The notes beneath the pieces are model-generated. The model did no database searches. It was not told the DNA's origin and saw only the letters and a program-made list of their open reading frames with translations. DNA of 64,000 nt from Prevotella sp. (lineage in GTDB: Bacteria; Bacteroidota; Bacteroidia; Bacteroidales; Bacteroidaceae), in the NCBI GenBank assembly GCA_024697645.1, contig JAILFH010000089.1:1-64000 (forward strand), written 5' to 3'. The translations under genes were made by a program, and so were the position numbers. Shown piece by piece: positions 978 through 46,879 of this stretch (positions within the stretch are counted from its first letter, which is position 1; each line of letters starts with the position of its first letter).

Positions 978-3479
978 ATGATCAATCACATTTATATAAA
1001 TAGTAGTGGACGGAAGGTCGTCCACATTGTTAACTCCCCAGAGGAGTATTTCAAACTGCGTAATTCGGAAACGAACAGGCGCAACCTGAAGCGGGCACGA
1101 CAGGGTGATGGGAACTCGAAGCGTGCGCTGATTCAGTTCAACTACAATGCACGTGTTGCCGAAGGAGAACCCTTGGCTGGCTGTTGTGCTGCCGCTTCGA
1201 CTTGTGCTGGCGACATCGACTGCTACGACGCTGAAGAGCGCGAGGCCATTGTGGCTCGCATCCTGCCTTTGGCTGAGAAACTGCAACTGCTGGAACTGAG
1301 CCGCTCTGTGAACGGTCTGCACTGGGTGCGCCGTCGTCAGCAAGGTCAGACGATTCTTGAGAATCAGGTTGCTTTCGCTATGGAAACGGGCACGGAGGTA
1401 GATACGAACGCTCACGACTTGCAGCGAGTGATGTTCACGACTACTGCCGACCCTGAAGACCTCTTGTATTTCAATAAAGCCATCTTCATAGAGATTATGA
1501 GCGAGGAAGAAAGCCGCGAGGAATACAGGGTGATGAAGGAGCGCGAGGAGAAGGGATTGGAGAATGTGCCAGAGGGAGCGAAGAAAAGTAATAAACACTT
1601 TAGCCCTTCCCCTAACCCCTCCCCCGTAGGGAGGGGAGATAGGGGCCTCTCCCCCCTTACCCCCTCTCCTGAAGAGCGAGGGGGAGTGAGCCCTTCCCCT
1701 AACCCCTCCCCCGTAGGGAGGGGAACAGGAAACTCTGAAATGGGGCAACAGCCTGCTGAAGTCTCCCCTACGGGGGGAGATTTAGAGGGGGCCACAGTCT
1801 CCCCTACGGGGGGAGATTTAGAGGGGGCTACGGGGGGAGATTTAGAGGGGGCTCCTAGTTTCAAAGGCATCCCTTATTCCTCTATCATCTCCGAATACTG
1901 GCTGCAGACTGGTGGTGAACCCCAGGAAGGTGAGCGCAATGTGAAACTGCACAAACTGGCGGTGAACCTTCGTGCCATTTGCGACAACAAGCGTGATCTG
2001 CTGATGCAGATAATGCCACGACTCGGCTTGTCGGAGCAGGAGCTGCGCTCTATCGTTGACTCTGCATGTAAGGAAGAGCCGAAGGGTATCTCGAAACGAA
2101 TGCAGGAAGTGTTGAAGGGCGTTCAGTGGAGAGAGGAGAGTGGGGTGACCGATTCTGATGCCGACGATGCTGAAGGACAGAACGACTTGGGCTCCCGGCT
2201 GAACGTGAGGATGCTGCCACTGGGTCTGAAGGAATCGCTCATTGGAGTTCCGGAAGGTATGCGAATGCCCGTGATTTGCGCAGTGATGCCCATTGCCGCA
2301 GCCTACGCTGATCAGGTAGAGGTGAAGTATTGCGACGGGAATATGCAGCGACTCGGACTGATGTCAATCATCAAAGGCGAACAAGCCTCAGGTAAGAGCG
2401 TTTGCAAACTTGCTGTGGATGTCTGGAAGCGTCAGTTTGATGAGGAAGATGCTTTGGCTCGCAAGCGTGAGGAGGAATGGAAGGAGCGCAAGAAGGCTCG
2501 TAAGGCGAACGAGAAGGCGCCCGACGACCCGAAGGTATTGATCAGAACGGTACCCGTGACGGTTTCCTGTTCTACGCTCCTGCGCCGATTCAAGAACTCT
2601 GACGGTCATTGCCTCTACTCGTTCTGTGAGGAACTCGACACGCTCCGCAAGACCAACGGCGCTGGCTCTTGGTCGTCGAAGTACGACATCTATCGTCTGT
2701 CGTTTGATAATGGTGAATGGGGACAGGACTACAACTCCGATCAGGCAGAGAGCGGTGTGGTGAACGTGGCCTACAACTGGACGATGTTAGGTACCGACGG
2801 GGCAATGCGCAAGTGCTTCAAGCAGGACAACATCGAAAACGGCCTTTCGAGCCGAGTGCTTGTTTCGGAAATGCCTGATTCCAGTTTCTCCAAGATGCCG
2901 AAGTTTGGCAGGAGGTCGGAAGACGACGAGGCCCGCATTCAGGACGCTGTGACTCGTCTGCGCTCTGCCACTGGATTCATCGACACTCCTCGTCTGCGAA
3001 AGGCCATTGAGCAATGGGTTGAAGAGAAGCGCATCGAGGCTGCGAAGGACATCGACCGCGTGAAGGACACCTATCGCAAGCGCGCTGCAGTGATTGGTTT
3101 CCGCTGTGGGGTTGTCTACTACATTCTTGCTGGCAATCACGAGACGAAATGCTGTCTGGAGTTTGCCCAACTGATGGCAGAATATGCCCTTCAGCAGCAG
3201 ATAAAAGCCTTCGGCGAGGCACTGAGAAACGAGTATGTCGATGCTTCTGACGAATGTCAGCGATACGGCAAAAACCACAGCGTGTTCGACCAACTGCCAC
3301 CAACCTTCTCAATGAACGATCTGCGAGCTCTGAAGAATGGCAAGTGTGGCGAGAGCGGTCTGCGCAGTATTGTTTTCCGTTGGCGTTCAGATGGTTGGAT
3401 TGAGAAGATAGATACCAAGCACTGGAAGAAGTCGAGTCCCGAGGCCTCACGAACACCCTCATCGCCAGTCGCAACCTAA
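978..3479 (+). CDS. VirE_N / DUF3987 primase-helicase-like protein with repeat-derived insert
   Basis: This 833-aa protein resembles the two-part VirE N-terminal (BT4734-like) plus DUF3987 proteins common in Bacteroides and Prevotella. Residues 1-205 fit the VirE_N region. Residues about 300-390 look like a primase C-terminal helical segment. Residues from about 400 hold a P-loop (GEQASGKS, near residue 467) and an acidic SFCEELD motif resembling Walker B, typical of the DUF3987 helicase-like part. Between them, residues about 208-294 are a proline/glycine-rich insert made only of in-frame palindromic repeats. The ATG at 978 is the first in-frame start. The family is often seen in mobile or phage-like cassettes with DUF5675 and DUF4248 genes, which also follow here. 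ATP-dependent DNA unwinding or priming is inferred from the family and not shown. Confidence 0.75.
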   Translation: MINHIYINSSGRKVVHIVNSPEEYFKLRNSETNRRNLKRARQGDGNSKRALIQFNYNARVAEGEPLAGCCAAASTCAGDIDCYDAEEREAIVARILPLAEKLQLLELSRSVNGLHWVRRRQQGQTILENQVAFAMETGTEVDTNAHDLQRVMFTTTADPEDLLYFNKAIFIEIMSEEESREEYRVMKEREEKGLENVPEGAKKSNKHFSPSPNPSPVGRGDRGLSPLTPSPEERGGVSPSPNPSPVGRGTGNSEMGQQPAEVSPTGGDLEGATVSPTGGDLEGATGGDLEGAPSFKGIPYSSIISEYWLQTGGEPQEGERNVKLHKLAVNLRAICDNKRDLLMQIMPRLGLSEQELRSIVDSACKEEPKGISKRMQEVLKGVQWREESGVTDSDADDAEGQNDLGSRLNVRMLPLGLKESLIGVPEGMRMPVICAVMPIAAAYADQVEVKYCDGNMQRLGLMSIIKGEQASGKSVCKLAVDVWKRQFDEEDALARKREEEWKERKKARKANEKAPDDPKVLIRTVPVTVSCSTLLRRFKNSDGHCLYSFCEELDTLRKTNGAGSWSSKYDIYRLSFDNGEWGQDYNSDQAESGVVNVAYNWTMLGTDGAMRKCFKQDNIENGLSSRVLVSEMPDSSFSKMPKFGRRSEDDEARIQDAVTRLRSATGFIDTPRLRKAIEQWVEEKRIEAAKDIDRVKDTYRKRAAVIGFRCGVVYYILAGNHETKCCLEFAQLMAEYALQQQIKAFGEALRNEYVDASDECQRYGKNHSVFDQLPPTFSMNDLRALKNGKCGESGLRSIVFRWRSDGWIEKIDTKHWKKSSPEASRTPSSPVAT
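1608..1857 (+). repeat. Cluster of in-frame GC-rich palindromic repeats inside the DUF3987 gene
   Basis: Two direct copies of AGCCCTTCCCCTAACCCCTC, each followed by a CCCGTAGGGAGGGG palindrome, lie about 75 bp apart. They are followed by two full copies and one partial copy of a CCCCTACGGGGGGAGATTTA-type element. All are read in frame as SPNPSPVGRG and SPTGGDLEGA. The length keeps the frame open. Confidence 0.85.
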
Positions 3480-5529: not shown

Positions 5530-6939
5530 ATGAACAATCTAGGTTACGATAAGACTTCGCCAAAGTCGATTTTCGAATACGCAATCCCTTTGCTCGACCA
5601 TACTCTCCGTGAGATGGTTGGCGATGAAGCCGTGCATGGTTACAACATGAAGGGTAAGGGCACACTAGGGCAGATGGTAGAAGAATTGTACTATCATTAT
5701 AAGGTGAACAGCAATCCATCTCCCGACTTCGAAGAGGCTGGCGTGGAACTTAAGACAACAGGACTAAAGCGACTAAAGGACCTATCGCTGCAAATAAAGG
5801 AACGCTTGGTGGTGGATATGATTGACTATAATGAAGTGGTTAATCAGTCGTTTGAGATGTCGCTCTTTTATAACAAATGCCGCCTGATGCTTTTGCTCTT
5901 TTATCTTTATGATGGAAGTCTTGAGCAATATGACCGCTTGTTCCTCTATCTGGCTTTATGGAAAATCCCCGAAAAGGATTTGCTGATGATAAAGCACGAC
6001 TATGAGGTTATCATCGAGAAGATAAAACGCGGCGAAGCTCATCTGCTATCAGAAGGCGATACCGAATATCTTGGAGCGTGCCGGAAAGGACAAAAGGGCG
6101 ATTCTTTGAGGAAACAACCAAATTCAGAAATTGGCGCACCACGAAGGGCTTTCTCTTTGAAAACTGCATATATGCGCACCGTTCTCCAATACATTAAGGA
6201 TTCGGGAAAACGTGCAGTTGTCAATTATGAGTTTGAAGGCGAACAAGTTGTTCAGACTAGCGAACTTCAGGAACGACCGTTTGACGAGATTATTCTATCA
6301 CGCTTTGCACCTTATATTGGTAAGGACTACAAGGAGATTTGCGCATTACTTAACAAGAAAGAGTCACGTTCGAAAGCAAAATATTTTGATATTGCCAACA
6401 GTATAGTTTCACCCGATGTAAGCAACGTGAACAGATCTGAAGAATTTATGAAAGCAGGTCTGACAATGAAGACTATTCGTGTAGAGGGGAATGGCAGTAT
6501 TAATGAAAGTATGTCTTTTGAAAACATTGATTATGAAGAAGTCTATGACAATGAAAATTGGTATGACTCCCGATTGTATGAAATGTTTACAAGCCGTTTC
6601 TTGTTCGTGGTTTATCGCCAAGACCCCAACAGGAAGATTGTTGTAAATGGAAAAGAAGAGAAAAGATATTTCTTGGACAAGGTATTTTTCTGGACAATGC
6701 CGCTAGATGATGTTGATTTGGCTGAGCAATATTGGCTGAACATCCGTGAAAGTGTTTTAAAGAATCATATTGACCCTTTGTATTTCTGGAAGATTAAAGA
6801 CCATAAGAAATTCCATGTAAGACCAAAGGGAAGAGTGGCAGCAGACCTTGCCTATAATCCCAATGGTGGATATGCAAAGAAATATTGTTATTGGTTTAAT
6901 AGTGAATATGTTAAGAATATAATAGAAAACAATGGATAA
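5530..6939 (+). CDS. Sau3AI/MutH-type type II restriction endonuclease
   Basis: The 469-aa protein has the MutH/Sau3AI N-terminal catalytic region: a GKGTLGQMVEELYY helix followed by SPDFEEAGVELKTTG, in which D66, E73 and K75 form the D-(x)n-E-x-K centre. A later EYLGACRKGQKGDSLRKQP segment followed by RRAFSLKTAYM is typical of Sau3AI-like enzymes, whose C-terminal half is a second MutH-like domain used for allosteric DNA binding. Family enzymes recognise GATC; the site here is inferred. The gene overlaps the methyltransferase by 8 bp (ATGGATAA), indicating translational coupling of cutting and protection. Confidence 0.88.
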   Translation: MNNLGYDKTSPKSIFEYAIPLLDHTLREMVGDEAVHGYNMKGKGTLGQMVEELYYHYKVNSNPSPDFEEAGVELKTTGLKRLKDLSLQIKERLVVDMIDYNEVVNQSFEMSLFYNKCRLMLLLFYLYDGSLEQYDRLFLYLALWKIPEKDLLMIKHDYEVIIEKIKRGEAHLLSEGDTEYLGACRKGQKGDSLRKQPNSEIGAPRRAFSLKTAYMRTVLQYIKDSGKRAVVNYEFEGEQVVQTSELQERPFDEIILSRFAPYIGKDYKEICALLNKKESRSKAKYFDIANSIVSPDVSNVNRSEEFMKAGLTMKTIRVEGNGSINESMSFENIDYEEVYDNENWYDSRLYEMFTSRFLFVVYRQDPNRKIVVNGKEEKRYFLDKVFFWTMPLDDVDLAEQYWLNIRESVLKNHIDPLYFWKIKDHKKFHVRPKGRVAADLAYNPNGGYAKKYCYWFNSEYVKNIIENNG

Positions 6940-8656
6940 AGAACAAAACAAAATACGTGTCGTTGAACTTTTTGCTGGTGTGGGAGGATTTCGCATCGGT
7001 CTTGAAGGTGCTTCAGATGTGTTTGAAACCATCTGGAACAATCAATGGGAGCCATCTACGCAACATCAGGACGCATCGTTGGTCTATCGTGCTCGCTTTG
7101 GCGACAAAGGCCATTCAAATAAGGACATCAATCTTGTGCCCACAAAAGAGATTCCCGACCACGATTTATTGGTCGGAGGTTTCCCCTGTCAGGACTATTC
7201 TGTCGCAGCAACGCTGAGCAAATCAGGTGGCATTGAAGGCAAGAAGGGTGTTCTATGGTGGCAGATTTATAGAATTTTGAATGAGAAGGGAGACAAGCGT
7301 CCTCAGTTCATTTTCTTTGAGAATGTTGACCGACTGCTCAACTCGCCTGCAACTCAGCGCGGACGTGACTTCGCCATTATCCTTGCATCATTGGCCGACT
7401 TAGGCTATATCGTAGAGTGGCGTATCATCAATGCAGCCGAATACGGAATGCCCCAGCGTAGAAGAAGGACCTACATAGTTGGCTATCAGAAAGACTCTGT
7501 GATTGCTAAGAAAATAGAAGGAATGGAAGACTGGGTAGAGTTCGATGGCGTTATGGCAAAAGCGTTTGAATTCAAACCTAAGGCATCGTCTGTTTCTGCA
7601 TTCGATATTGAAGGCACAATTCCCGAGGTTTCTGCCAATTTCAATAAAGGCAAGAAGAACAGTCCTTTTGGGAATGCAGGAATGATGAAGGACCGCCATG
7701 TTTATTCGGTTGATGCCGACCCTGTCTATGATGGTCCGAGACAAACACTAGGAGGTAATCTTGTCGACGAGAATCTTGTGCCTGAGGAGTTCTTCATCTC
7801 TGAGGAAGACTTGCCAAAGTGGAAGTACGAGAAGGGAGCAAAGAAGATAAATCGTGTCTCAAAGCAAGGATTTGAATATGTGTTCTCTGAGGGAGGAATG
7901 GCCTTCCCTGACTATCTTGACCAACCTTCACGCACCATCATAACGGGAGAAGGCGGAACGGCTCCTTCGCGTTTCAAGCATGTAGTGAAAACTCCATCAG
8001 GACGTTATCGCCGACTGCTGCCTATTGAGTTGGAGCGAATGAATATGTTCCCAGACAACCACACATATCATCCTGAGGTGAGCGACGGAAGAAGGGCTTT
8101 CCTCATGGGTAATGCGCTGGTATGTGGTATAGTTCAGGAAATCGGAAAGAGCCTTTATCAGTTCATCTATGACGAAGCGCCAGAGTCTTCTCGCCCCATA
8201 TTCACACAGCGTGAAGCAAAACCGATGCTCGACTTAGGTCTATTCGACGACGAGAAGAAAGTGCTAGTTGTAAACCGCCCGAAGAAGCAATACTCGCTTG
8301 ATGAGACAAAACATCTGCTGATTGGATTGGTGAAGAAGGACAACGAGGAGTATTTCCTGAAAGAAGAGCCGACGAAGATTTACTATACAGGCAAGACCAA
8401 GACCTTCCCTTCAACGGTAGCCCTGAACAAACTTTACTATTTCATGCCTTACATTAAAGAAAAGGGCGTGCGTGATTTGTATCTCATCCGAGTTGCCCGT
8501 ATCGGCACCAAGGCCGAGATTCATCCAAAGTCAAACGACGAAGACCCCAGACTCGTCTTCGAGTTGGAGTATCTTGAAAGTCTGCCCGAGTATAAAATGG
8601 TCACCCTCAACCGCTATTGGTTTAAGGACACGCTGCTGGGGAAGATAGTGAAATAA
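6932..8656 (+). CDS. C5 cytosine-specific DNA methyltransferase with C-terminal extension
   Basis: The 574-aa protein has ordered C5-methyltransferase motifs: motif I FAGVGGF (14-20), motif IV PCQ with the catalytic Cys86, motif VI ENVD (130-133), motif VIII QRRRR (175-179), and a late motif IX/X region ending FLMGNALV (about residue 395). It should transfer a methyl group from AdoMet to C5 of cytosine in the recognition site of the neighbouring Sau3AI-like enzyme, probably GATC. About 150 residues follow motif X (from about 425), whereas ordinary Dcm-like enzymes end soon after; I do not recognise this extension. It overlaps the nuclease gene by 8 bp. Confidence 0.92.
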   Translation: MDKEQNKIRVVELFAGVGGFRIGLEGASDVFETIWNNQWEPSTQHQDASLVYRARFGDKGHSNKDINLVPTKEIPDHDLLVGGFPCQDYSVAATLSKSGGIEGKKGVLWWQIYRILNEKGDKRPQFIFFENVDRLLNSPATQRGRDFAIILASLADLGYIVEWRIINAAEYGMPQRRRRTYIVGYQKDSVIAKKIEGMEDWVEFDGVMAKAFEFKPKASSVSAFDIEGTIPEVSANFNKGKKNSPFGNAGMMKDRHVYSVDADPVYDGPRQTLGGNLVDENLVPEEFFISEEDLPKWKYEKGAKKINRVSKQGFEYVFSEGGMAFPDYLDQPSRTIITGEGGTAPSRFKHVVKTPSGRYRRLLPIELERMNMFPDNHTYHPEVSDGRRAFLMGNALVCGIVQEIGKSLYQFIYDEAPESSRPIFTQREAKPMLDLGLFDDEKKVLVVNRPKKQYSLDETKHLLIGLVKKDNEEYFLKEEPTKIYYTGKTKTFPSTVALNKLYYFMPYIKEKGVRDLYLIRVARIGTKAEIHPKSNDEDPRLVFELEYLESLPEYKMVTLNRYWFKDTLLGKIVK

Positions 8657-8681
8657 AAAAGATAATAAAACAACAGACTAT

Positions 8682-10460
8682 ATGAAAGCTAACGATTTGT
8701 TTTTGCTAAAGGTTTTTAGCACACATACTGTTTTTGAAATTCCTTACTATCAACGTGCATACGTTTGGGGGGAAGATAATTGGAAAAGGTTTTTAGAGGA
8801 TATGGAAAACATATCACTTGTAGAAAAACCATACTTTATTGGTTCATTGATTCTTAAACAGAAAGAAACGGAGACAGGTAGCACATATAGTGATGTGCGT
8901 GTGGTTATTGACGGACAACAACGCCTAACAACCATTACTATCTTTTTCAAAGTCCTAAGTTTGAAAAGAAATAGACCGCAAATTTTCAATGATTTTCTGA
9001 TAACACTTAGCGACGAGTCTGACGAGAGAGAAATCTCTATCCACCATAACCACATTGACAAAGAGGCTTTTAACAAAATCGTTAATCTTACAGAACCACT
9101 GGATTTGTCTGTTGATGAAAACGGAAAGAAAATAGAGGTTCATAATCGTATCATTCAGATGTATAATTATTTCAACAAAAATCTGAATGTTGATAAGATA
9201 TCATCTGACAAGGTAAAGAGATTATTACATTTTGTAGTGATAGATTTAGGCTCAGAAGAGAATGAGCAACAAATATTTGACACGATTAATTCTCTTGGTG
9301 TTACTTTAACTACGTCAGAACTTTTGAAGAACTATCTCTTCGATGAGAAAAATGAGGATAAGTATAACAAATACTGGAAACCCGTATTTGAAGCTGATGA
9401 AGAGCAGAAGAAGTATTGGGACCAAATCGTTTACTCTGGTACAAAAAAGTATCATTTAATAGACCTTTTCCTTTACGCCTTGTTGATGATTAAGATGAGG
9501 GGTGGAGATTATTCTGTATCAACGGAAGACAAGCTGGAATACGAGAAAGTTGCCAAACTCTTTCCTTCTTACAAGGATTTTGTTGCCAAATATATGGGCA
9601 GGGATAAGGGGAAGTTAATGGTAGACATCTATAAATCTGCCAGTCTTTTTAAGGAGAAATTTAATCCAAATTGTAAGAAAGAGTCTGTTACGTCAGACCC
9701 TGGTCTCGAGCGTGTTAACTTAATGATGTTTGCTCTAGATTATACGGTTATGTTGCCATATATTCTTTATGTATTGATGTATGCAGAACCTGATGAACAA
9801 ACTAAAATATTTGATTATATTGAAACTTTCATGATGCGCAGAAGTATTGCTCGTCTTGAAACACGTGGATATAATGCACTATTTACCGATGGACTAATTA
9901 CAAATAGAATACTTACCGCAGAAGAACTGAAAGCCTATGTAAATAGAGACAGGGATGCAACATATAGGGCAGCAAAACAGGAAGAGATTAAAAATGGAAT
10001 TAAGAATATCGTATATATTAATCGGCAAGCTCTCGGTTTCCTGTATATGTTAGAGAGCCGTTTAAGGTCTGACAAACTTGCAGCTACACAACTTTTTGGT
10101 ATAGGCAATTACAGCTTAGAACATTTGCTCCCTAAAAAATGGAGACAATATTGGGATGTGCCTGAAAATGAGGAACTTGCTGAGCAAACAGATGATGCAC
10201 TTTATACATTCGGAAATCTCGCTATTATCCCGGGATCGTTGAATACAAGCATTAGCAATGCCCCATGGTCCGTAAAACTTGCAGGAAAGGGCAATAAGGA
10301 AGGACTTCTTAAAAATGCTAAGGGATTGATAACACTAGATGAGTATCTTGAATTACCAGAATGGAATCTTGAGACTATTAGGTATCGCGCTAAAAAATTG
10401 TATCAACAGATTTTAGCCACATGGTCAGAGCCTTGGGATGTTCAGGAAGAAGATTTTTAA
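8682..10460 (+). CDS. DUF262/DUF1524 protein, GmrSD-like modification-dependent nuclease
   Basis: The 592-aa protein joins the two GmrS/GmrD halves. The N-terminal DUF262 part has FEIPYYQRAYVW, then IDGQQRLTT, the ParB-like nucleotide-hydrolysing signature, and later NSLGVTLTTSELLKNYLF. The C-terminal DUF1524 part has LEHLLPKKW and NLAIIPGSLNTSISN, an HNH-like nuclease core with the HxxP histidine. GmrSD proteins use NTP to cut DNA with modified (often glucosylated) cytosines, which would complement the methyltransferase-based system upstream by catching phages that hide their DNA by base modification. It starts 25 bp after the methyltransferase and is probably co-transcribed. The exact target is unknown. 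Confidence 0.85.
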   Translation: MKANDLFLLKVFSTHTVFEIPYYQRAYVWGEDNWKRFLEDMENISLVEKPYFIGSLILKQKETETGSTYSDVRVVIDGQQRLTTITIFFKVLSLKRNRPQIFNDFLITLSDESDEREISIHHNHIDKEAFNKIVNLTEPLDLSVDENGKKIEVHNRIIQMYNYFNKNLNVDKISSDKVKRLLHFVVIDLGSEENEQQIFDTINSLGVTLTTSELLKNYLFDEKNEDKYNKYWKPVFEADEEQKKYWDQIVYSGTKKYHLIDLFLYALLMIKMRGGDYSVSTEDKLEYEKVAKLFPSYKDFVAKYMGRDKGKLMVDIYKSASLFKEKFNPNCKKESVTSDPGLERVNLMMFALDYTVMLPYILYVLMYAEPDEQTKIFDYIETFMMRRSIARLETRGYNALFTDGLITNRILTAEELKAYVNRDRDATYRAAKQEEIKNGIKNIVYINRQALGFLYMLESRLRSDKLAATQLFGIGNYSLEHLLPKKWRQYWDVPENEELAEQTDDALYTFGNLAIIPGSLNTSISNAPWSVKLAGKGNKEGLLKNAKGLITLDEYLELPEWNLETIRYRAKKLYQQILATWSEPWDVQEEDF

Positions 10461-10599: not shown

Positions 10600-10844
10600 G
10601 AAAATAATCGAGGAAAACTTTCTGCAAATCTCGTTACACTCTCCTCTATATTCTAGCGAAGCGCAGTTGAGAAAAGTTGAGAAGCCTTAGGCTTTTGTTG
10701 AGAAATGTTAGATTGGTTATGAGCAGCATTTCCAAAGTAACAAAGTAAAAAAGTAACAAGGTAACATTCGTGGACGAGTTCCGCCTTTGGCGGCCGTTTC
10801 CAAGGTAACAAGGTAACAAAGTAACAAGGTAACATTCGTGGACG

Positions 10845-11030
10845 AGTTCCGCCTTTGGCGGCCTTTAGAAAACAAGAAAAAACAAAAGAAAACAGTTAAA
10901 AACATTTGGCGCGATGCGCCAAGAATAGTGACATAAAAAAACCTTCACCTGCAGCGAGCCAATCTGTGAAATCAGTCTAAATCGAAATAAAAATAAATCT
11001 GAGAAAATCTGTGTAATCTGTGGGCAAAAA
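10845..11030 (+). repeat. Dispersed ~185-bp intergenic element, copy 1
   Basis: It runs from AGTTCCGCCTTTGGCGGCC (a small hairpin) through the perfect palindrome GGCGCGATGCGCC and CTGCAGCGAGCC to ATCTGTGTAATCTGTGGGCA. Copy 3 (22435-22620, inverted) is almost identical over its whole length and copy 2 (12085-12257, inverted) is close. No ORF is present. It is flanked on both sides by AAAGTAACAAGGTAAC-type tandem words (10733-10835 and 11085-11106). Confidence 0.85.
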
Positions 11031-11151
11031 ATAATGAGTAATTAGAAATTAGTAATGAGTAGTAATGAGTAGTTATGAGCAGCATTTCCAAAGTAACAAA
11101 GTAACATATCCTTGAGATTCGCGTGATACGTGGAAAAAATGAGGAGTCGTG

Positions 11152-11285
11152 CGAAGCACTTTGAACTTTTGAACAGCCCGAAGGGCGATTGAACTAGGGC
11201 ATAGCCCGTTGAACTGCCCGAAGGGCAAAGTAGCGAAGCGAAGAGTAGCGAAGCGGAATGTTCAATGCCCGAGTGGCAAAATAGT
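11152..11285. repeat. Array of mini-hairpin words with TTGAAC linkers
   Basis: Successive perfect mini-palindromes GTGCGAAGCAC, GCCCGAAGGGC, GGGCATAGCCC, GCCCGAAGGGC, then two GTAGCGAAGCG units, are joined by TTGAACT/TTTGAAC linkers. The stems differ but the format (stem of 3-5, loop of 2-4, linker) is constant. Bases 10530-11400 otherwise hold only repeats and no gene. Confidence 0.75.
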
Positions 11286-12036: not shown

Positions 12037-12084
12037 AAGCGCAGCCACGAATTACTCATTGCTCATTACTAATTTCTCATTATT

Positions 12085-12257
12085 TTTTGCCCACAGATTA
12101 CACAGATTTTCTCAGATTTATTTTTATCTGATTTACAGATTGGCTCGCTGCAGATGGCGTTTTTTTTATGTCACTATTCTTGGCGCATCGCGCCAAATGT
12201 TTTCTTATGTTTTATTATGTTTTTAATTGTTTTCTTAAAGCCGCCAACGGCGGAACT
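12085..12257 (-). repeat. Dispersed ~185-bp intergenic element, copy 2 (inverted)
   Basis: The minus strand repeats copy 1: GCCGTTGGCGGC hairpin, GGCGCGATGCGCC palindrome, CTGCAGCGAGCC, and the CTGTGTAATCTGTGGGC end, with some changes in the AT-rich spacer. Confidence 0.8.
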
Positions 12258-12406
12258 CATCAGTTTCTTAACTGAATCCCCTTTGGCTTAGGCCGCTTCC
12301 CCTATGGGGAACGCTCAAACTTTGTTACTTTGGAAATGCTACTCATAACCAATCTCAACATTTCTCAACACCTCTCAACATTTCATAACCGCGCGAAGCG
12401 CCTTCT

Positions 12407-15349: not shown

Positions 15350-15560
15350 AAACGTTAACGTTGAACCTTGGCGTTAACTTTGAACCCTTGAACGCGCGTA
15401 GCGCATTTGAACTTTTGAACAGCGACGAAAGTCGCCTAATATAGCCGCAGTCGATATGTAGCGTCAGCGATATGTAGACGAAGTCGAAGTGTAGCCGCAG
15501 GCGAAATGTAAAAAGTTCCTTGAACTTTTGAACCGCCCGAAGGGCGAAAGAGTGTTAGGC
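15350..15560. repeat. Array of mini-hairpin words with GTAG and TTGAAC linkers
   Basis: Words such as GCGCGTAGCGC, GCGACGAAAGTCGC, GCGTCAGCG, ACGAAGTCG, GCCGCAGGC and CGCCCGAAGGGCG are separated by ATGTAG or TTGAAC linkers. Several words are directly preceded by GTAG. A run of about 70 bp (15445-15515) recurs inverted at 22096-22170. The array fills the gap between the DUF6057 gene and the SusC operon terminator. Confidence 0.75.
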
Positions 15561-21767: not shown

Positions 21768-22059
21768 TCTAAAATTTTGTAACACTATTTCAAAAATTGT
21801 ATCAGAATCGTTTCAATATGTAACATAATATAAAAATGAATCAATTATTCGGGGGTAATGATACAAATAAGGAAGTGACGTTTTGTCTTTTTTGATGAAA
21901 ATGTTCTGTTTTTTTTGTATGTTTCATCATCCAGCGCTTCGCGCAACTCAAACAAGAGACCCTCCCCATCACCCCTCCCGTAAAGGGCGGGAAGTAGATA
22001 GTCTAAGTGGCGCACCAACAAGGTTAAGAATGTTTCGCGGCCACGACGGGCTGAAAGCC

Positions 22060-22180
22060 CAAGTTCAGTCGCCCTTCGGGCAGTTCTAAGAACAATTACA
22101 TTTCGCCTACGGCTACACTTCGACTTTGTCTACATATCGCTGACGCTACTTTTCGCTTCGCTACAATTTAGAGGAGAGAG
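22060..22180 (-). repeat. Mini-hairpin word array, inverted relative to 15350-15560
   Basis: On the minus strand: GTAGCGAAGCG, GTAGCGTCAGCG, ATATGTAGACAAAGTCG, TGTAGCCGTAGGC, then GCCCGAAGGGC and GGGCTTTCAGCCC. The central part is a near copy of 15445-15515. Confidence 0.7.
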
Positions 22181-22434
22181 GAGTGTGGAGAGTGGAGAGA
22201 GAATAGCGCTGCGCGCAGTTAAAAAGTTCAAAGTTCAAGGTCAACGTTAAGGTTTAGAGTAGTTATGAGCAGTTATGAGCGGCATTGTCCAAAGTAACAA
22301 GGTAACAGAGTAACAAAGTAACGTGGTTATGGGCGTGCTCGCCAGATCCAAAAGTTCTTGTTTCTTGTTCTTTTCTCCTCGTTTCTCGTTCCTCGCTCCT
22401 CGACAAATAAACGTCAAGGTCAACGTTCAAAGTT

Positions 22435-22620
22435 TCTTTGCCCACAGATTACAAAGATTTTCTCAGATTTCTTTTTATTTCGATTTAGACTGATTTTATA
22501 GATTGGCTCGCTGCAGGTGAAGGTTTTTTTATGTCACTATTCTTGGCGCATCGCGCCAAATGTTTTTAACTGTTTTCTTTTGTTTTTTCTTGTTTTCTAA
22601 AGGCCGCCAAGGGCGGAACT
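22435..22620 (-). repeat. Dispersed ~185-bp intergenic element, copy 3 (inverted)
   Basis: On the minus strand this is almost identical to copy 1 at 10845-11030 over its full length, including the GGCGCGATGCGCC palindrome and the CTGCAGCGAGCC block. Both ends fall at the same words, which argues for a discrete mobile unit. Confidence 0.85.
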
Positions 22621-22847
22621 CAGCAGTTATAATTTTCCATTTTCCATTCGAATATCCCCTTCGGCTTAGGCCCTTTGCCTTTAGCGTTCTTGCGTCGGCT
22701 TGGGCTTCGCCAGTCTTGCACGACCCGAAGGCTGCACCCCAAGCCTTCACCGACGATACTCAATCGTCGTCTTGTCTTGGCCTCCCCGAAGGAGGGGAAT
22801 GCGTGGGTGCGACTTCCAACTGCAAAGAGGCGAGATATAGCCCTTCA

Positions 22848-41948: not shown

Positions 41949-42189
41949 CATGTTGGTTTTGCGGATGCAAAGGTAAGTAAAAAGTTCGGAACCACCAAAT
42001 ATTTGGGTTGAATTTTTGATAAAAACTTTCTGAGACCTTGTTTTTAGAGCGAGCCTGAAGGCTTCGGATGCAAGTTCTTTGGCGTAACATTCTCAACTTT
42101 CTCAACAAAGACCGAAGGCTTCTCAACCGCGCGAAGTTCATTCTCAACTCTTCTCAACACCTCTCAACACCTCTCAACCGCGCGAAGCG

Positions 42190-42540
42190 CCTTGTTACCT
42201 TGTTACCTTGTTACTTTGTTACTTTGGATATGCCTCTCAACTCCTCTCAACCGCGCGAAGCGCCTTGTTACCTTGTTACCTTGTTACTTTGGATATGCCT
42301 CTCAACTCTTCTCAACACATCTCAACCGCGCGAAGCGCTTTGTTACCTTGTTACTTTGTTACTTTGGATATGCCTCTCAACTCTTCTCAACTCTTCTCAA
42401 CCGCGCGAAGCGCTTTGTTACCTTGTTACCCTGTTACTTTGGATATGCCTCTCAACTCTTCTCAACACATCTCAACCGCGCGAAGCGCCTTGTTACTTTG
42501 TTACCTTGTTACTTTGGATATGCCACTCATAACTACTCAT
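42190..42540. repeat. 75-bp tandem array between tRNA-His and the Na/Pi transporter
   Basis: The block GGATATGCCTCTCAAC occurs at 42226, 42291, 42366 and 42441, with a last divergent copy at 42516, spaced 65, 75, 75 and 75 bp. Each unit is [TTGTTACC/TTTGTTAC]n + GGATATGCC + [TCTCAACTCT]n + CCGCGCGAAGCGC. The one 65-bp unit lacks one 10-mer. All three plus-strand frames stay open. The same words continue to about 42660 and at 42090-42190. Confidence 0.9.
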
Positions 42541-45009: not shown

Positions 45010-46602
45010 CTATTCTTTATATTTCACAGGGGTGGCTTCGCCTTTCAGGATGTCTGCAAACTGATGTGGGGTGATGGTTACAGGTCCGCGCATGAATTCG
45101 GGGATGTTGTAACTCCTCATGAACTGCCTGTGATAGTCGGGGTCGGCGGTCGGCAGTTCGAAAGGCTTCGTCCCCTTTCCGTTTGCATCGATATGTGCAA
45201 TGAACGGTCGGGTGAACGTACCGTCGTATCTTCTGCTGCTGATGATCACCCACCGGCCGTTGCTCGACCAGGAATGATAACTCTCGGTGTCGGAGGAGTT
45301 GATTTCACTCATAGGTCGTATCTCGCCGCTCTGGAGGTCAAGTGACCAGATGTCGGCATCGTGATGCCAGATGTGGAAATAGCCGAATTTGCCGGATGTG
45401 AAATGCAGGAAGCGCCCATCGGGTGAAACTCTTGGCAGCGTGGCACTCTGGTCGTTGGCCGCAGCGTCATAGACCAGTTCCTTAGGACCGAACTGACGGG
45501 TGGCAGGGTCGAAACTCTTCTTGTAGATGTTGTATCTGAATTCCTGATATCTGTTTCTCATCTCCACATTTTTTGAATGTGCTGTATCCTGATACTCAAA
45601 GTGGGCACTACAGAAGTAGAGCGTCTTCCCATCGGGAGCCCAGCAGGGGAATACCTCAAACTCCGTGGTGTCGTTTTCCAGGTTGGTCACCTCATTCTTG
45701 TCGATGTCGTAGGCAATGATGTCGCTCGCCAGATCATATACCTCAATCTTGTTGAGGTTGTTGATGTGGAAGTTCTGGAAGGTCTTGTCGGTGGCATAGA
45801 CGATGAAGTTGAGGGTGGGATGCCACGCGGGATAGACACCAGCCGCAAGGATGGAGTCGTTCTTCATGTTTATTTTCTTCATGTTCCCGTCCATGACAAG
45901 GACAGTGCCACCGCGGAACTGACGGGCGTGGAACTGCATGCGCTGGGGATTGTATGCCTGATAGTGGTGACAGTTGATGCACTGGCCGTCTTTCTCGAAA
46001 CTGTTGAGGATGTTGTCGTAGATAACGCTTTCGTCGTAGTTCTCGAGGCATCGCTGGTTGATGGTCAGAGCCTCGTAGGAGACGAAGGACGGGGCTATCA
46101 GTCGGTAACTGATATAGGGGTCGATGGAGTCGGCCGACACATAGATGCAGAAAGGCTTGTGGCGTGTCCATTGGTCATCGGTCTGTGTGAAGACGTCCAC
46201 TTCAATCTTACCTCCCCGTGCTTTTTCCGTCAGTCGGTGCCATTCCTCTTCCGTAGGCTGCATCTTGTCGGCATAGATTACTTCCTCATCCCCCGCCTTG
46301 TAGCGCGCAATCATGCCCACGTCAGGATTATCGGGCATGAACGTCAGTGGGGCTATATTTGCCGGTACGGTTACGTTGACATAGTCTGGATAGATCTTAG
46401 GCCACTCGCCAGACTGTTTGTATTCCGTGGGCAACTGAGGCTGGCCGCACGAGGCCAACAGCAGTATGAAAAGTCCCACCCCAACCCTTCCTATGAGGGA
46501 TAGCAGGGGAACCTTGACGCTAACGCTAACCTTGAACCTTGAACTTTGTTCCTTGAACTTTGAACCTTGAACCATAAACCTTGAACTTATAACCTTGACC
46601 AT
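45010..46602 (-). CDS. TolB-like propeller lipoprotein with a CxxCH motif (copy 2)
   Basis: The 530-aa ORF is a paralogue of 12407-13942. Shared features are the KIYPDYVNVTVPANIAPLTF domain, GQCINCHHYQ (CxxCH) near residue 215, and PD40-like blades (WHPTLNFIVYATD, WAPDGKTLYFCS, VSPDGRFLHFTSG, NGRWVIISSRR). The lipobox is LLLASC. The first 30 or so residues (VQGSKFKEQSSRFKVSVSVK) are translations of the intergenic AAGTTCAAGG-type repeat, so repeat DNA now supplies the start and part of the signal peptide; the original start is not visible. It is paired with the DUF6057 gene upstream, but 277 bp of repeats separate them. Confidence 0.78.
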   Translation of the reverse strand: MVKVISSRFMVQGSKFKEQSSRFKVSVSVKVPLLSLIGRVGVGLFILLLASCGQPQLPTEYKQSGEWPKIYPDYVNVTVPANIAPLTFMPDNPDVGMIARYKAGDEEVIYADKMQPTEEEWHRLTEKARGGKIEVDVFTQTDDQWTRHKPFCIYVSADSIDPYISYRLIAPSFVSYEALTINQRCLENYDESVIYDNILNSFEKDGQCINCHHYQAYNPQRMQFHARQFRGGTVLVMDGNMKKINMKNDSILAAGVYPAWHPTLNFIVYATDKTFQNFHINNLNKIEVYDLASDIIAYDIDKNEVTNLENDTTEFEVFPCWAPDGKTLYFCSAHFEYQDTAHSKNVEMRNRYQEFRYNIYKKSFDPATRQFGPKELVYDAAANDQSATLPRVSPDGRFLHFTSGKFGYFHIWHHDADIWSLDLQSGEIRPMSEINSSDTESYHSWSSNGRWVIISSRRYDGTFTRPFIAHIDANGKGTKPFELPTADPDYHRQFMRSYNIPEFMRGPVTITPHQFADILKGEATPVKYKE

Positions 46603-46879
46603 TAGACTTTAAACTTTGAACTTTGACGCTAACGCTAACGTTAACGTTAACCTTAACCTTAACCTTAACCTTAACCTTGATCTTTGATCCTCGAAACTTG
46701 AAACTTGAAACTCGAAACTTGAAACTCGAAACTTGAAACTCGAAACTTGTTCCTCGAAACTTGTTCCTCGAAACTTGTTCCTTGAACTTTGAACCTTGAA
46801 CTAGGGCGAAGCCCGTTGAACTGCGACGAATGTCGCCTTGAACAGGCGCTTGCGCCGATTGAACTGGGGCGAAGCCCCC
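46603..46879. repeat. Low-complexity and hairpin-word repeats between a gene pair
   Basis: In order (plus strand): TTGAACTTTGAC words, five or so CTTAAC/GTTAAC hexamers (46625-46677), a run of CGAAACTTGAAACTTGAAACT 15-bp units (46690-46780), then mini-hairpin words GGGCGAAGCCC, GCGACGAATGTCGC, GGCGCTTGCGCC and GGGCGAAGCCC with TTGAAC linkers. In the paralogous pair at 13.9 kb the gap is 12 bp. Confidence 0.85.

What the first reader, a model, noticed from the sequence alone, without database searches (positions are those of the whole stretch)
11152..11285. Hairpin-word array: constant format, changing stems
Consecutive mini-palindromes (GTGC-GAA-GCAC, GCCC-GAA-GGGC, GGGC-AT-AGCCC, GCG-AA-GCG) are strung on TTGAAC linkers. 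The stems differ completely but each stays self-complementary, so structure is kept while sequence changes. The same grammar occurs at 15350-15560, 22060-22180 and 46800-46875. This is unlike ordinary satellite DNA and suggests selection or copying at the level of hairpins, for example by a REP-type (IS200/IS605-like, RAYT) single-strand transposase, or a beads-on-a-string RNA.
Basis: partly seen in the sequence, partly recalled or inferred. Interest (0 to 1): 0.72.

Follow-up and report, generated by a model that had tools for sequence, protein, structure and literature searches.

The report
Arrays of ever-changing tiny DNA hairpins
Between the genes of some rumen Prevotella lie strings of tiny, almost perfect DNA hairpins on a constant spacer, in which the hairpin sequence keeps changing but its two halves keep matching, without the transposase usually blamed for such repeats; this makes it possible to test how matched hairpin arms are kept matched.

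Summary
The window is from a rumen Prevotella MAG. In 738 kb of its genome, 28% (99/348) of intergenic CGAAG/CTTCG sit at the tip of a perfect stem of 4 bp or more. In slots between TTGAAC linkers, 24 of 51 distinct words are hairpins, against 4.6 when half-words are swapped. Two related species (G157, G599) show the grammar more cleanly: a GTATCGTA/GTTTCGTA linker alternates with hairpins of about 22 different stems per genome; 161 of 171 units are perfect and 90 of 99 distinct units close (5.3 expected on half-swap). Half of the stems are shared between the two species and loops vary freely. At one orthologous gene junction the words differ completely, and other junctions have the array in only one species. 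RAYT/Y1 transposase is above cut-off in only 2 of 8 array-bearing genomes and absent from this one. Linker orientation ignores gene direction (27:23), against an RNA reading. I read these as fast-turnover, REP-like DNA hairpin repeats, probably copied as words or blocks between arrays and kept paired while folded as single strands. Copying agent and function are not shown.

The parts
11149..11159 (+). hairpin word GTGC-GAA-GCAC
11161..11174 (+). TTGAAC linkers (11161-11166, 11169-11174)
11176..11186 (+). hairpin word GCCC-GAA-GGGC
11189..11194 (+). TTGAAC linker
11197..11207 (+). hairpin word GGGC-ATA-GCCC
11209..11214 (+). TTGAAC linker
11215..11227 (+). hairpin word TGCCC-GAA-GGGCA
11230..11257 (+). 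two GTAG-tagged short words (GC-GAA-GC)
11266..11278 (+). decayed word TGCC[CGAGT]GGCA (C-T mismatch)
15394..15404 (+). hairpin word GCGC-GTA-GCGC in TTGAAC linkers
15422..15435 (+). hairpin word GCGAC-GAAA-GTCGC
15438..15510 (+). GTAG-linker array with 3-bp stems (GCC-GCA-GGC, GAC-GAA-GTC, GCGTCAGC)
15534..15546 (+). hairpin word CGCCC-GAA-GGGCG
22048..22081 (-). words GGGCT-GAA-AGCCC (22048-22060) and GCCC-GAA-GGGC (22071-22081; GAA strand of this one is minus)
22100..22165 (-). GTAG-linker array with short stems (GCC, GAC, GC)
42152..42529 (+). 75-bp tandem repeat carrying TCTCAAC linkers and GCGC-GAA-GCGC words
46804..46814 (+). hairpin word GGGC-GAA-GCCC
46823..46836 (+). hairpin word GCGAC-GAAT-GTCGC
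46845..46856 (+). hairpin word GGCG-CTTG-CGCC
46866..46878 (+). hairpin word GGGGC-GAA-GCCCC, ending at the stop codon of the DUF6057 gene

Best explanation
These are fast-turnover intergenic DNA repeats made of interchangeable hairpin cassettes. Shown: each genome strings many short, GC-rich, almost perfectly paired hairpins with 3-4 nt loops, in one direction, on constant 6-8 nt linkers; it draws them from a lexicon of stems that is partly shared between related species; loops vary freely; and arrays are gained, lost and rewritten between related species. Inferred: words and short blocks of words are copied from array to array through linker homology (recombination or template switching) while the DNA is single-stranded and folded, and the folded state lets one arm serve as template for the other, so mismatches are corrected and stems stay paired without selection on any single copy. 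Compact C-GAA-G turns would favour this because d(GCGAAGC) is an exceptionally stable DNA mini-hairpin. No dedicated RAYT is needed. Host function, if any, is unknown; a passive filler of tolerant intergenic space is the default.
For: Arm complementarity far above arm-swapped controls in three genomes, with 161 of 171 units perfect and only 6 with one mismatch in G157/G599. 11 of 22 stems shared between G157 and G599, against 4.0 expected, many stems with several loops. Multi-word blocks recur at different loci (GCCC-GGCGC-GGAGC-GCGAGC), differing mainly in loops. At one orthologous junction both species carry arrays with no word in common; at two others only G157 has the array, and at two more linker-borne hairpins occur only in G599. 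Array 46528-46878 is absent at the same gene junction in four related Prevotella. Individual words are therefore dispensable, so selection on single words is a poor explanation of perfect pairing. No strand preference relative to genes. No Y1 transposase here. Template switching is documented as able to create and maintain perfect stems (PMC8794818); GCGAAGC stability: PMC6582339 citing Hirao 1994.
Against: Tests that should show arm-to-arm correction directly were inconclusive: stems do not form a clear one-pair-step network (P about 0.23) and one-pair neighbours do not clearly share loops (G157 P 0.42, G599 P 0.05). Paired changes between similar blocks (39 two-sided against 7 one-sided) can also arise by swapping whole words, and the block pairs are not independent. 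In true block copies the stems barely change while loops do, which pure neutral correction predicts less well than constraint on the stem itself. No recombination or replication intermediate was observed.
Confidence: 0.4

Rival explanations
1. Purely neutral origin: slippage expands linker microsatellites and quasipalindrome correction turns chance imperfect palindromes into perfect hairpins in place; nothing is copied between loci.
For: Linkers are microsatellite-like; arrays are intergenic and turn over fast; template switching can make perfect stems (PMC8794818); some words are decayed.
Against: Half of the stems are shared between G157 and G599 and ordered multi-word blocks recur at different loci, which needs copying; neighbouring units never share a stem, whereas tandem slippage should duplicate neighbours.
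Confidence: 0.2
2. Selected function: the hairpins are maintained because they act, for example as terminators, mRNA stabilisers, dimeric protein-binding sites (constant half-site spacing of 3-4 nt) or nucleoid sites.
For: Stems recur across copies and species while loops vary; arrays avoid divergent, promoter-bearing intergenic regions in G157/G599 (3 divergent against 15 convergent arrays, with 44 and 36 such regions); units within an array almost never share a stem.
Against: Whole arrays absent or rewritten at orthologous junctions; orientation random relative to transcription; divergent regions carry words as often as others in the window's genome; more than 20 stems per genome at constant spacing do not look like one factor's site.
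Confidence: 0.2
3. REP-type elements mobilised by a RAYT/TnpA_REP (HUH, IS200/IS605-like) acting on folded single strands.
For: Palindromes in many copies between genes; in G157/G599 and at window 15438-15510 and 22100-22165 the hairpin is preceded by GTAG, the tag of the GTAG REP superfamily (PMC3733652).
Against: Y1_Tnp absent from this genome and above cut-off in only 2 of 8 array genomes; TTGAAC arrays have no GTAG; units are head-to-tail, whereas REPs are mainly head-to-head or tail-to-tail; more than 20 stems per genome would need many cognate enzymes.
Confidence: 0.12
4. One degenerate satellite with conserved stems, or chance hairpins in low-complexity DNA.
For: True for other families in this genome, e.g. 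TTCCCC...GGGGAA, where stems are conserved and only loops vary.
Against: Arm-swap tests and shuffles.
Confidence: 0.03

Closest known systems
REP / BIME repeats, GTAG- and CGTC-tagged superfamilies (PMC3733652; TnpA_REP, PMC8266576)
   Same: Short intergenic palindromes in many copies, often clustered, loops variable, hairpin recognised as a unit; GTAG sits 5' of the hairpin in the TCGTAG arrays.
   Different: About 22 stems per genome instead of one or a few consensus families; head-to-tail on a constant linker instead of inverted dimers; mostly 3-6 bp stems; no RAYT above cut-off in most array genomes; TTGAAC version lacks the tag; the listed phyla with GTAG repeats in that survey do not include Bacteroidetes.
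Template-switch / quasipalindrome correction (PMC8794818; PMC7202029)
   Same: A mutational process that creates perfect stems and keeps arms matched.
   Different: A process, not an element; does not explain the shared lexicon or block copying; its footprint could not be isolated here.
Repetitive hairpin-forming elements of sponge mitochondrial DNA (RHE, PMC2800124)
   Same: Structurally and compositionally divergent hairpins that repeatedly invade intergenic regions and differ between close relatives.
   Different: Organellar; not described there as fixed linker plus changing stem units (abstract-level comparison only).
TAACTGA direct-repeat sets of Beggiatoaceae (PMC4679880)
   Same: Intergenic head-to-tail sets of a 7-nt word comparable to the linkers here.
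   Different: No hairpin units between the words were found on a term search of the paper.

Membership tests
REP elements (definition in PMC12306157) | extragenic, palindromic, short, many copies | tested here: met
REP elements (definition in PMC12306157) | copies highly similar, one common consensus motif | tested here: not met
   about 22 stems per genome, arms not interchangeable; definition
GTAG REP superfamily (PMC3733652) | GTAG at one end of the palindrome | tested here: inconclusive
   met in TCGTAG arrays and window 15438-15510, not in TTGAAC arrays
GTAG REP superfamily (PMC3733652) | head-to-head or tail-to-tail dimers predominant, head-to-tail rare | tested here: not met
   arrays are head-to-tail; 3 of 70 intergenic regions have mixed orientation
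RAYT-mobilised REPtron | Y1 HUH transposase encoded in the genome | tested here: not met
   absent from the window's genome, above cut-off in 2 of 8 array genomes; assemblies 62-92% complete
RAYT-mobilised REPtron | transposase cleaves the cognate hairpin | not testable with these tools
   needs biochemistry
Known Rfam RNA families | match at gathering score | tested here: not met
   only a tRNA in the window
Ordinary tandem satellite | neighbouring units more alike than distant ones | tested here: not met
   0 of 86 neighbours share a stem in G157/G599, about 4.5 expected at random; an exception in the window's genome is a run of GGGC words at L045 15395-15503
Template-switch hairpins | loop inversion or stepwise paired changes between homologous copies | tested here: inconclusive

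The most novel reading that the evidence does not exclude
A class of bacterial repeats in which the heritable unit is a hairpin rather than a sequence: a copying system without RAYT that accepts any stem that closes on a short turn, strings the units on a fixed linker, and keeps a species-level lexicon of mutually different hairpins.
Probability: 0.22. Interest if true: 0.85.

Novelty: new variant of a known kind. Interest (0 to 1): 0.63.

Why it matters
Matched arms with changing sequence are the usual proof that a hairpin is functional. Here the arms stay matched in arrays that are dispensable and rewritten between related species, in random orientation to genes. That makes the open question of whether such covariation can arise without selection on the product directly testable in bacteria, and it warns against reading covariation as evidence of structured RNA. 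It also widens the known range of intergenic palindromes to a system with many stems and no evident RAYT.

Tried and rejected
RAYT/Y1 transposase: absent. Rfam: only a tRNA. Terminator role: words about equally frequent in divergent and convergent regions of the window's genome. RNA-strand reading: orientation 27:23, and only 6 one-mismatch units, too few to tell G-T from A-C. Replication-strand bias: none against GC skew. The TTCCCC/GGGGAA family was first taken as covarying; it is a conserved-stem repeat with variable loops. One-step stem network and loop-sharing tests for arm correction: inconclusive. Paired-change excess between blocks not used as proof because whole-word exchange gives the same pattern and because the search pattern fixes most of the linker. 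Viral contigs: no exact match to two array patterns. A literature search with the repeat letters found nothing on these repeats. The TTGAAC format outside the genus: only isolated matches without the array pattern in 396 genomes of the phylum.

Full report
What is there. The window is contig 50 of a 3.54-Mb, 125-contig assembly, 92% complete. Its nearest named relatives are rumen Prevotella MAGs. The other three places named have the same grammar.

Is it more than chance. In 424 kb of the genome, hairpins with a C-GAA-G or C-TTC-G tip number 54 in intergenic DNA against 1.8 in dinucleotide shuffles. In 738 kb, 99 of 348 intergenic CGAAG/CTTCG (28%) have a perfect stem of 4 bp or more, with 12 different inner arms. 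The critical control is to swap arms between words: 24 of 51 distinct words lying between TTGAAC linkers close, against a mean of 4.6 and a maximum of 9 in 200 swaps. For TTGAAC-adjacent CGAAG words 21 of 34 close, against 4.8 (max 12), and the inner pairs alternate between G-C and C-G. So stems differ and stay self-complementary. By itself the 141-bp finding is only modestly better folded than its shuffles.

Not every hairpin here is of this kind. The TTCCCC...GGGGAA words between GCCGC and GCTCAAA are a conserved-stem repeat with variable loops, with 85 pattern matches in this genome. CCCAGGGC-AAC-GCCCTGGG and TTGGCGC-GAT-GCGCCAA are also recurrent fixed stems.

Relatives. A strict search for TTGAAC..CGAAG..TTGAAC in 150 genomes of the genus finds true hairpins in a few species, with other stems: G105 GCGGC, GGAC, GGCC; G157 GCTCC; G080 TGTGC; G008 GCGC. 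Many other hits are one conserved non-hairpin string, TTGAACGACTCGAAGGCGTTGAAC (probably coding; not checked). In 396 genomes of the phylum, no such array was seen outside the genus. Reading the arrays of G157 showed a second linker, GTATCGTA or GTTTCGTA, with a different perfect stem in almost every unit. G157 has 142 pattern matches (reversed-pattern control 32) and G599 has 131 (control 69). Of 99 distinct units from both genomes, 90 close with 4 bp or more; half-swaps give 5.3, maximum 13. In fetched loci 161 of 171 units are perfect and 6 have one mismatch. Eleven of 22 stems are shared by the two species, against 4.0 expected (P 0.0002), many of them with several loops. Neighbouring units never share a stem (0 of 86; about 4.5 expected at random, each genome alone P about 0.1), and only 1 of 148 within-array pairs does (about 7.5 expected; P 0.13 and 0.01). 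This is opposite to a satellite.

Turnover. G157 and G599 are roughly 70-95% identical in syntenic coding flanks. At one orthologous junction (L116 9507-9710, L230 near 8457-8529) both have arrays on the same linker but no word in common; at L116 11631-11789 and L204 9684-9810 the array exists only in G157, and at two L198/L225 junctions linker-borne hairpins occur only in G599. These loci were chosen for carrying arrays, so this is not a rate. The window's array at 46528-46878 abuts the DUF6057 stop codon and is missing at that junction in four relatives with 77-82% identical DUF6057 protein. Multi-word blocks (GCCC-GGCGC-GGAGC-GCGAGC) occur at several G599 loci and differ mainly in loops, which shows copying of blocks.

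What it is not. Y1_Tnp is absent from this genome and above cut-off in only G105 and G772 among eight array genomes, so a RAYT is not required unless missed in incomplete assemblies. Linker orientation against co-directional genes is 27:23, and GAA-strand orientation ignores GC skew, so neither an RNA strand nor a replication strand is favoured. In G157/G599, arrays are rare in divergent regions (3 divergent and 15 convergent arrays, with 44 and 36 such regions), as expected for DNA tolerated where promoters are not; the window's genome does not show this.

Mechanism. Shown: format, arm matching, shared lexicon, variable loops, block copying, turnover. Inferred: copying between arrays through linker homology, and arm matching by templating while folded. 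Since single arrays are dispensable, selection on each word cannot easily keep 94% of units perfect; a mutational or copying process can. Template switching is known to create and keep perfect stems (PMC8794818), and d(GCGAAGC) is an extraordinarily stable DNA mini-hairpin (PMC6582339 citing Hirao 1994), which fits the C-GAA-G preference. But my direct tests for arm-to-arm correction were inconclusive, and the excess of paired changes between blocks could be whole-word exchange. The conservation of stems against loops may instead mean that stems are recognised by something not found here.

Comparison. The nearest known kind is the REP/BIME family. It works like a REP (intergenic, palindromic, multi-copy) but fails two defining features that I tested: one consensus motif, and the inverted-dimer organisation; the GTAG tag is present only in one linker version. 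I therefore call it a new variant of a known kind, with a 0.22 chance of something more distinct.

Limits. The genomes are MAGs; 738 kb of the window's 3.54 Mb was read; gene calls were a simple longest-ORF procedure; block and network tests are small and not independent; literature was searched only in the open-licence library.

Noticed in passing
window 10841-11061, 12053-12261, 22434-22628: A roughly 190-bp multi-part repeat (AATCTGTG words, TTGGCGC-GAT-GCGCCAA, CCGCC-NNN-GGCGG) in several copies and both orientations, 84-97% alike, also on contigs 30, 45 and 83; two copies face each other across the finding.
   Followed up: partly
window 12240-12320; L013, L018, L020, L021, L025: Conserved-stem hairpin family GCCGC-TTCCCC[NNN]GGGGAA-CGCTCAAA with hypervariable loops: 85 pattern matches in this genome, ordinary background counts in most relatives.
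   Followed up: yes
L013 17632-18374, L015 6140-6694, L027: Family CCCAGGGC[AAC or AGC]GCCCTGGG, identical 8-bp stems at many loci; also CCCAGGGC[GAT]GCCCTGGG in relative G069.
   Followed up: no
window 1760-1853: 36-bp and 24-bp tandem repeats containing a CTCCCC...GGGGAG hairpin lie inside the long ORF 978-3479; both periods are multiples of three.
   Followed up: no
window 6932-10460: A C5 cytosine methylase gene next to a GmrSD restriction gene, just upstream of the array.
   Followed up: no
window 42152-42529: Five copies of a 75-bp tandem repeat joining three linker types (TCTCAAC, CTTGTTAC, TTTGGATATGCC) with a GCGC-GAA-GCGC word.
   Followed up: no
window 46528-46801: Long low-complexity tract of AACCTTG/TTAACC/TTGAAAC units leading into the hairpin array, absent in four relatives.
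   Followed up: partly
L116 11600-11800 and L204 9650-9890 against L230 and L229: Arrays reach into gene ends: at L116 11631 the last codons and stop differ from the array-free species, and at L204 9684-9810 the array sits at the start of the downstream gene.
   Followed up: partly
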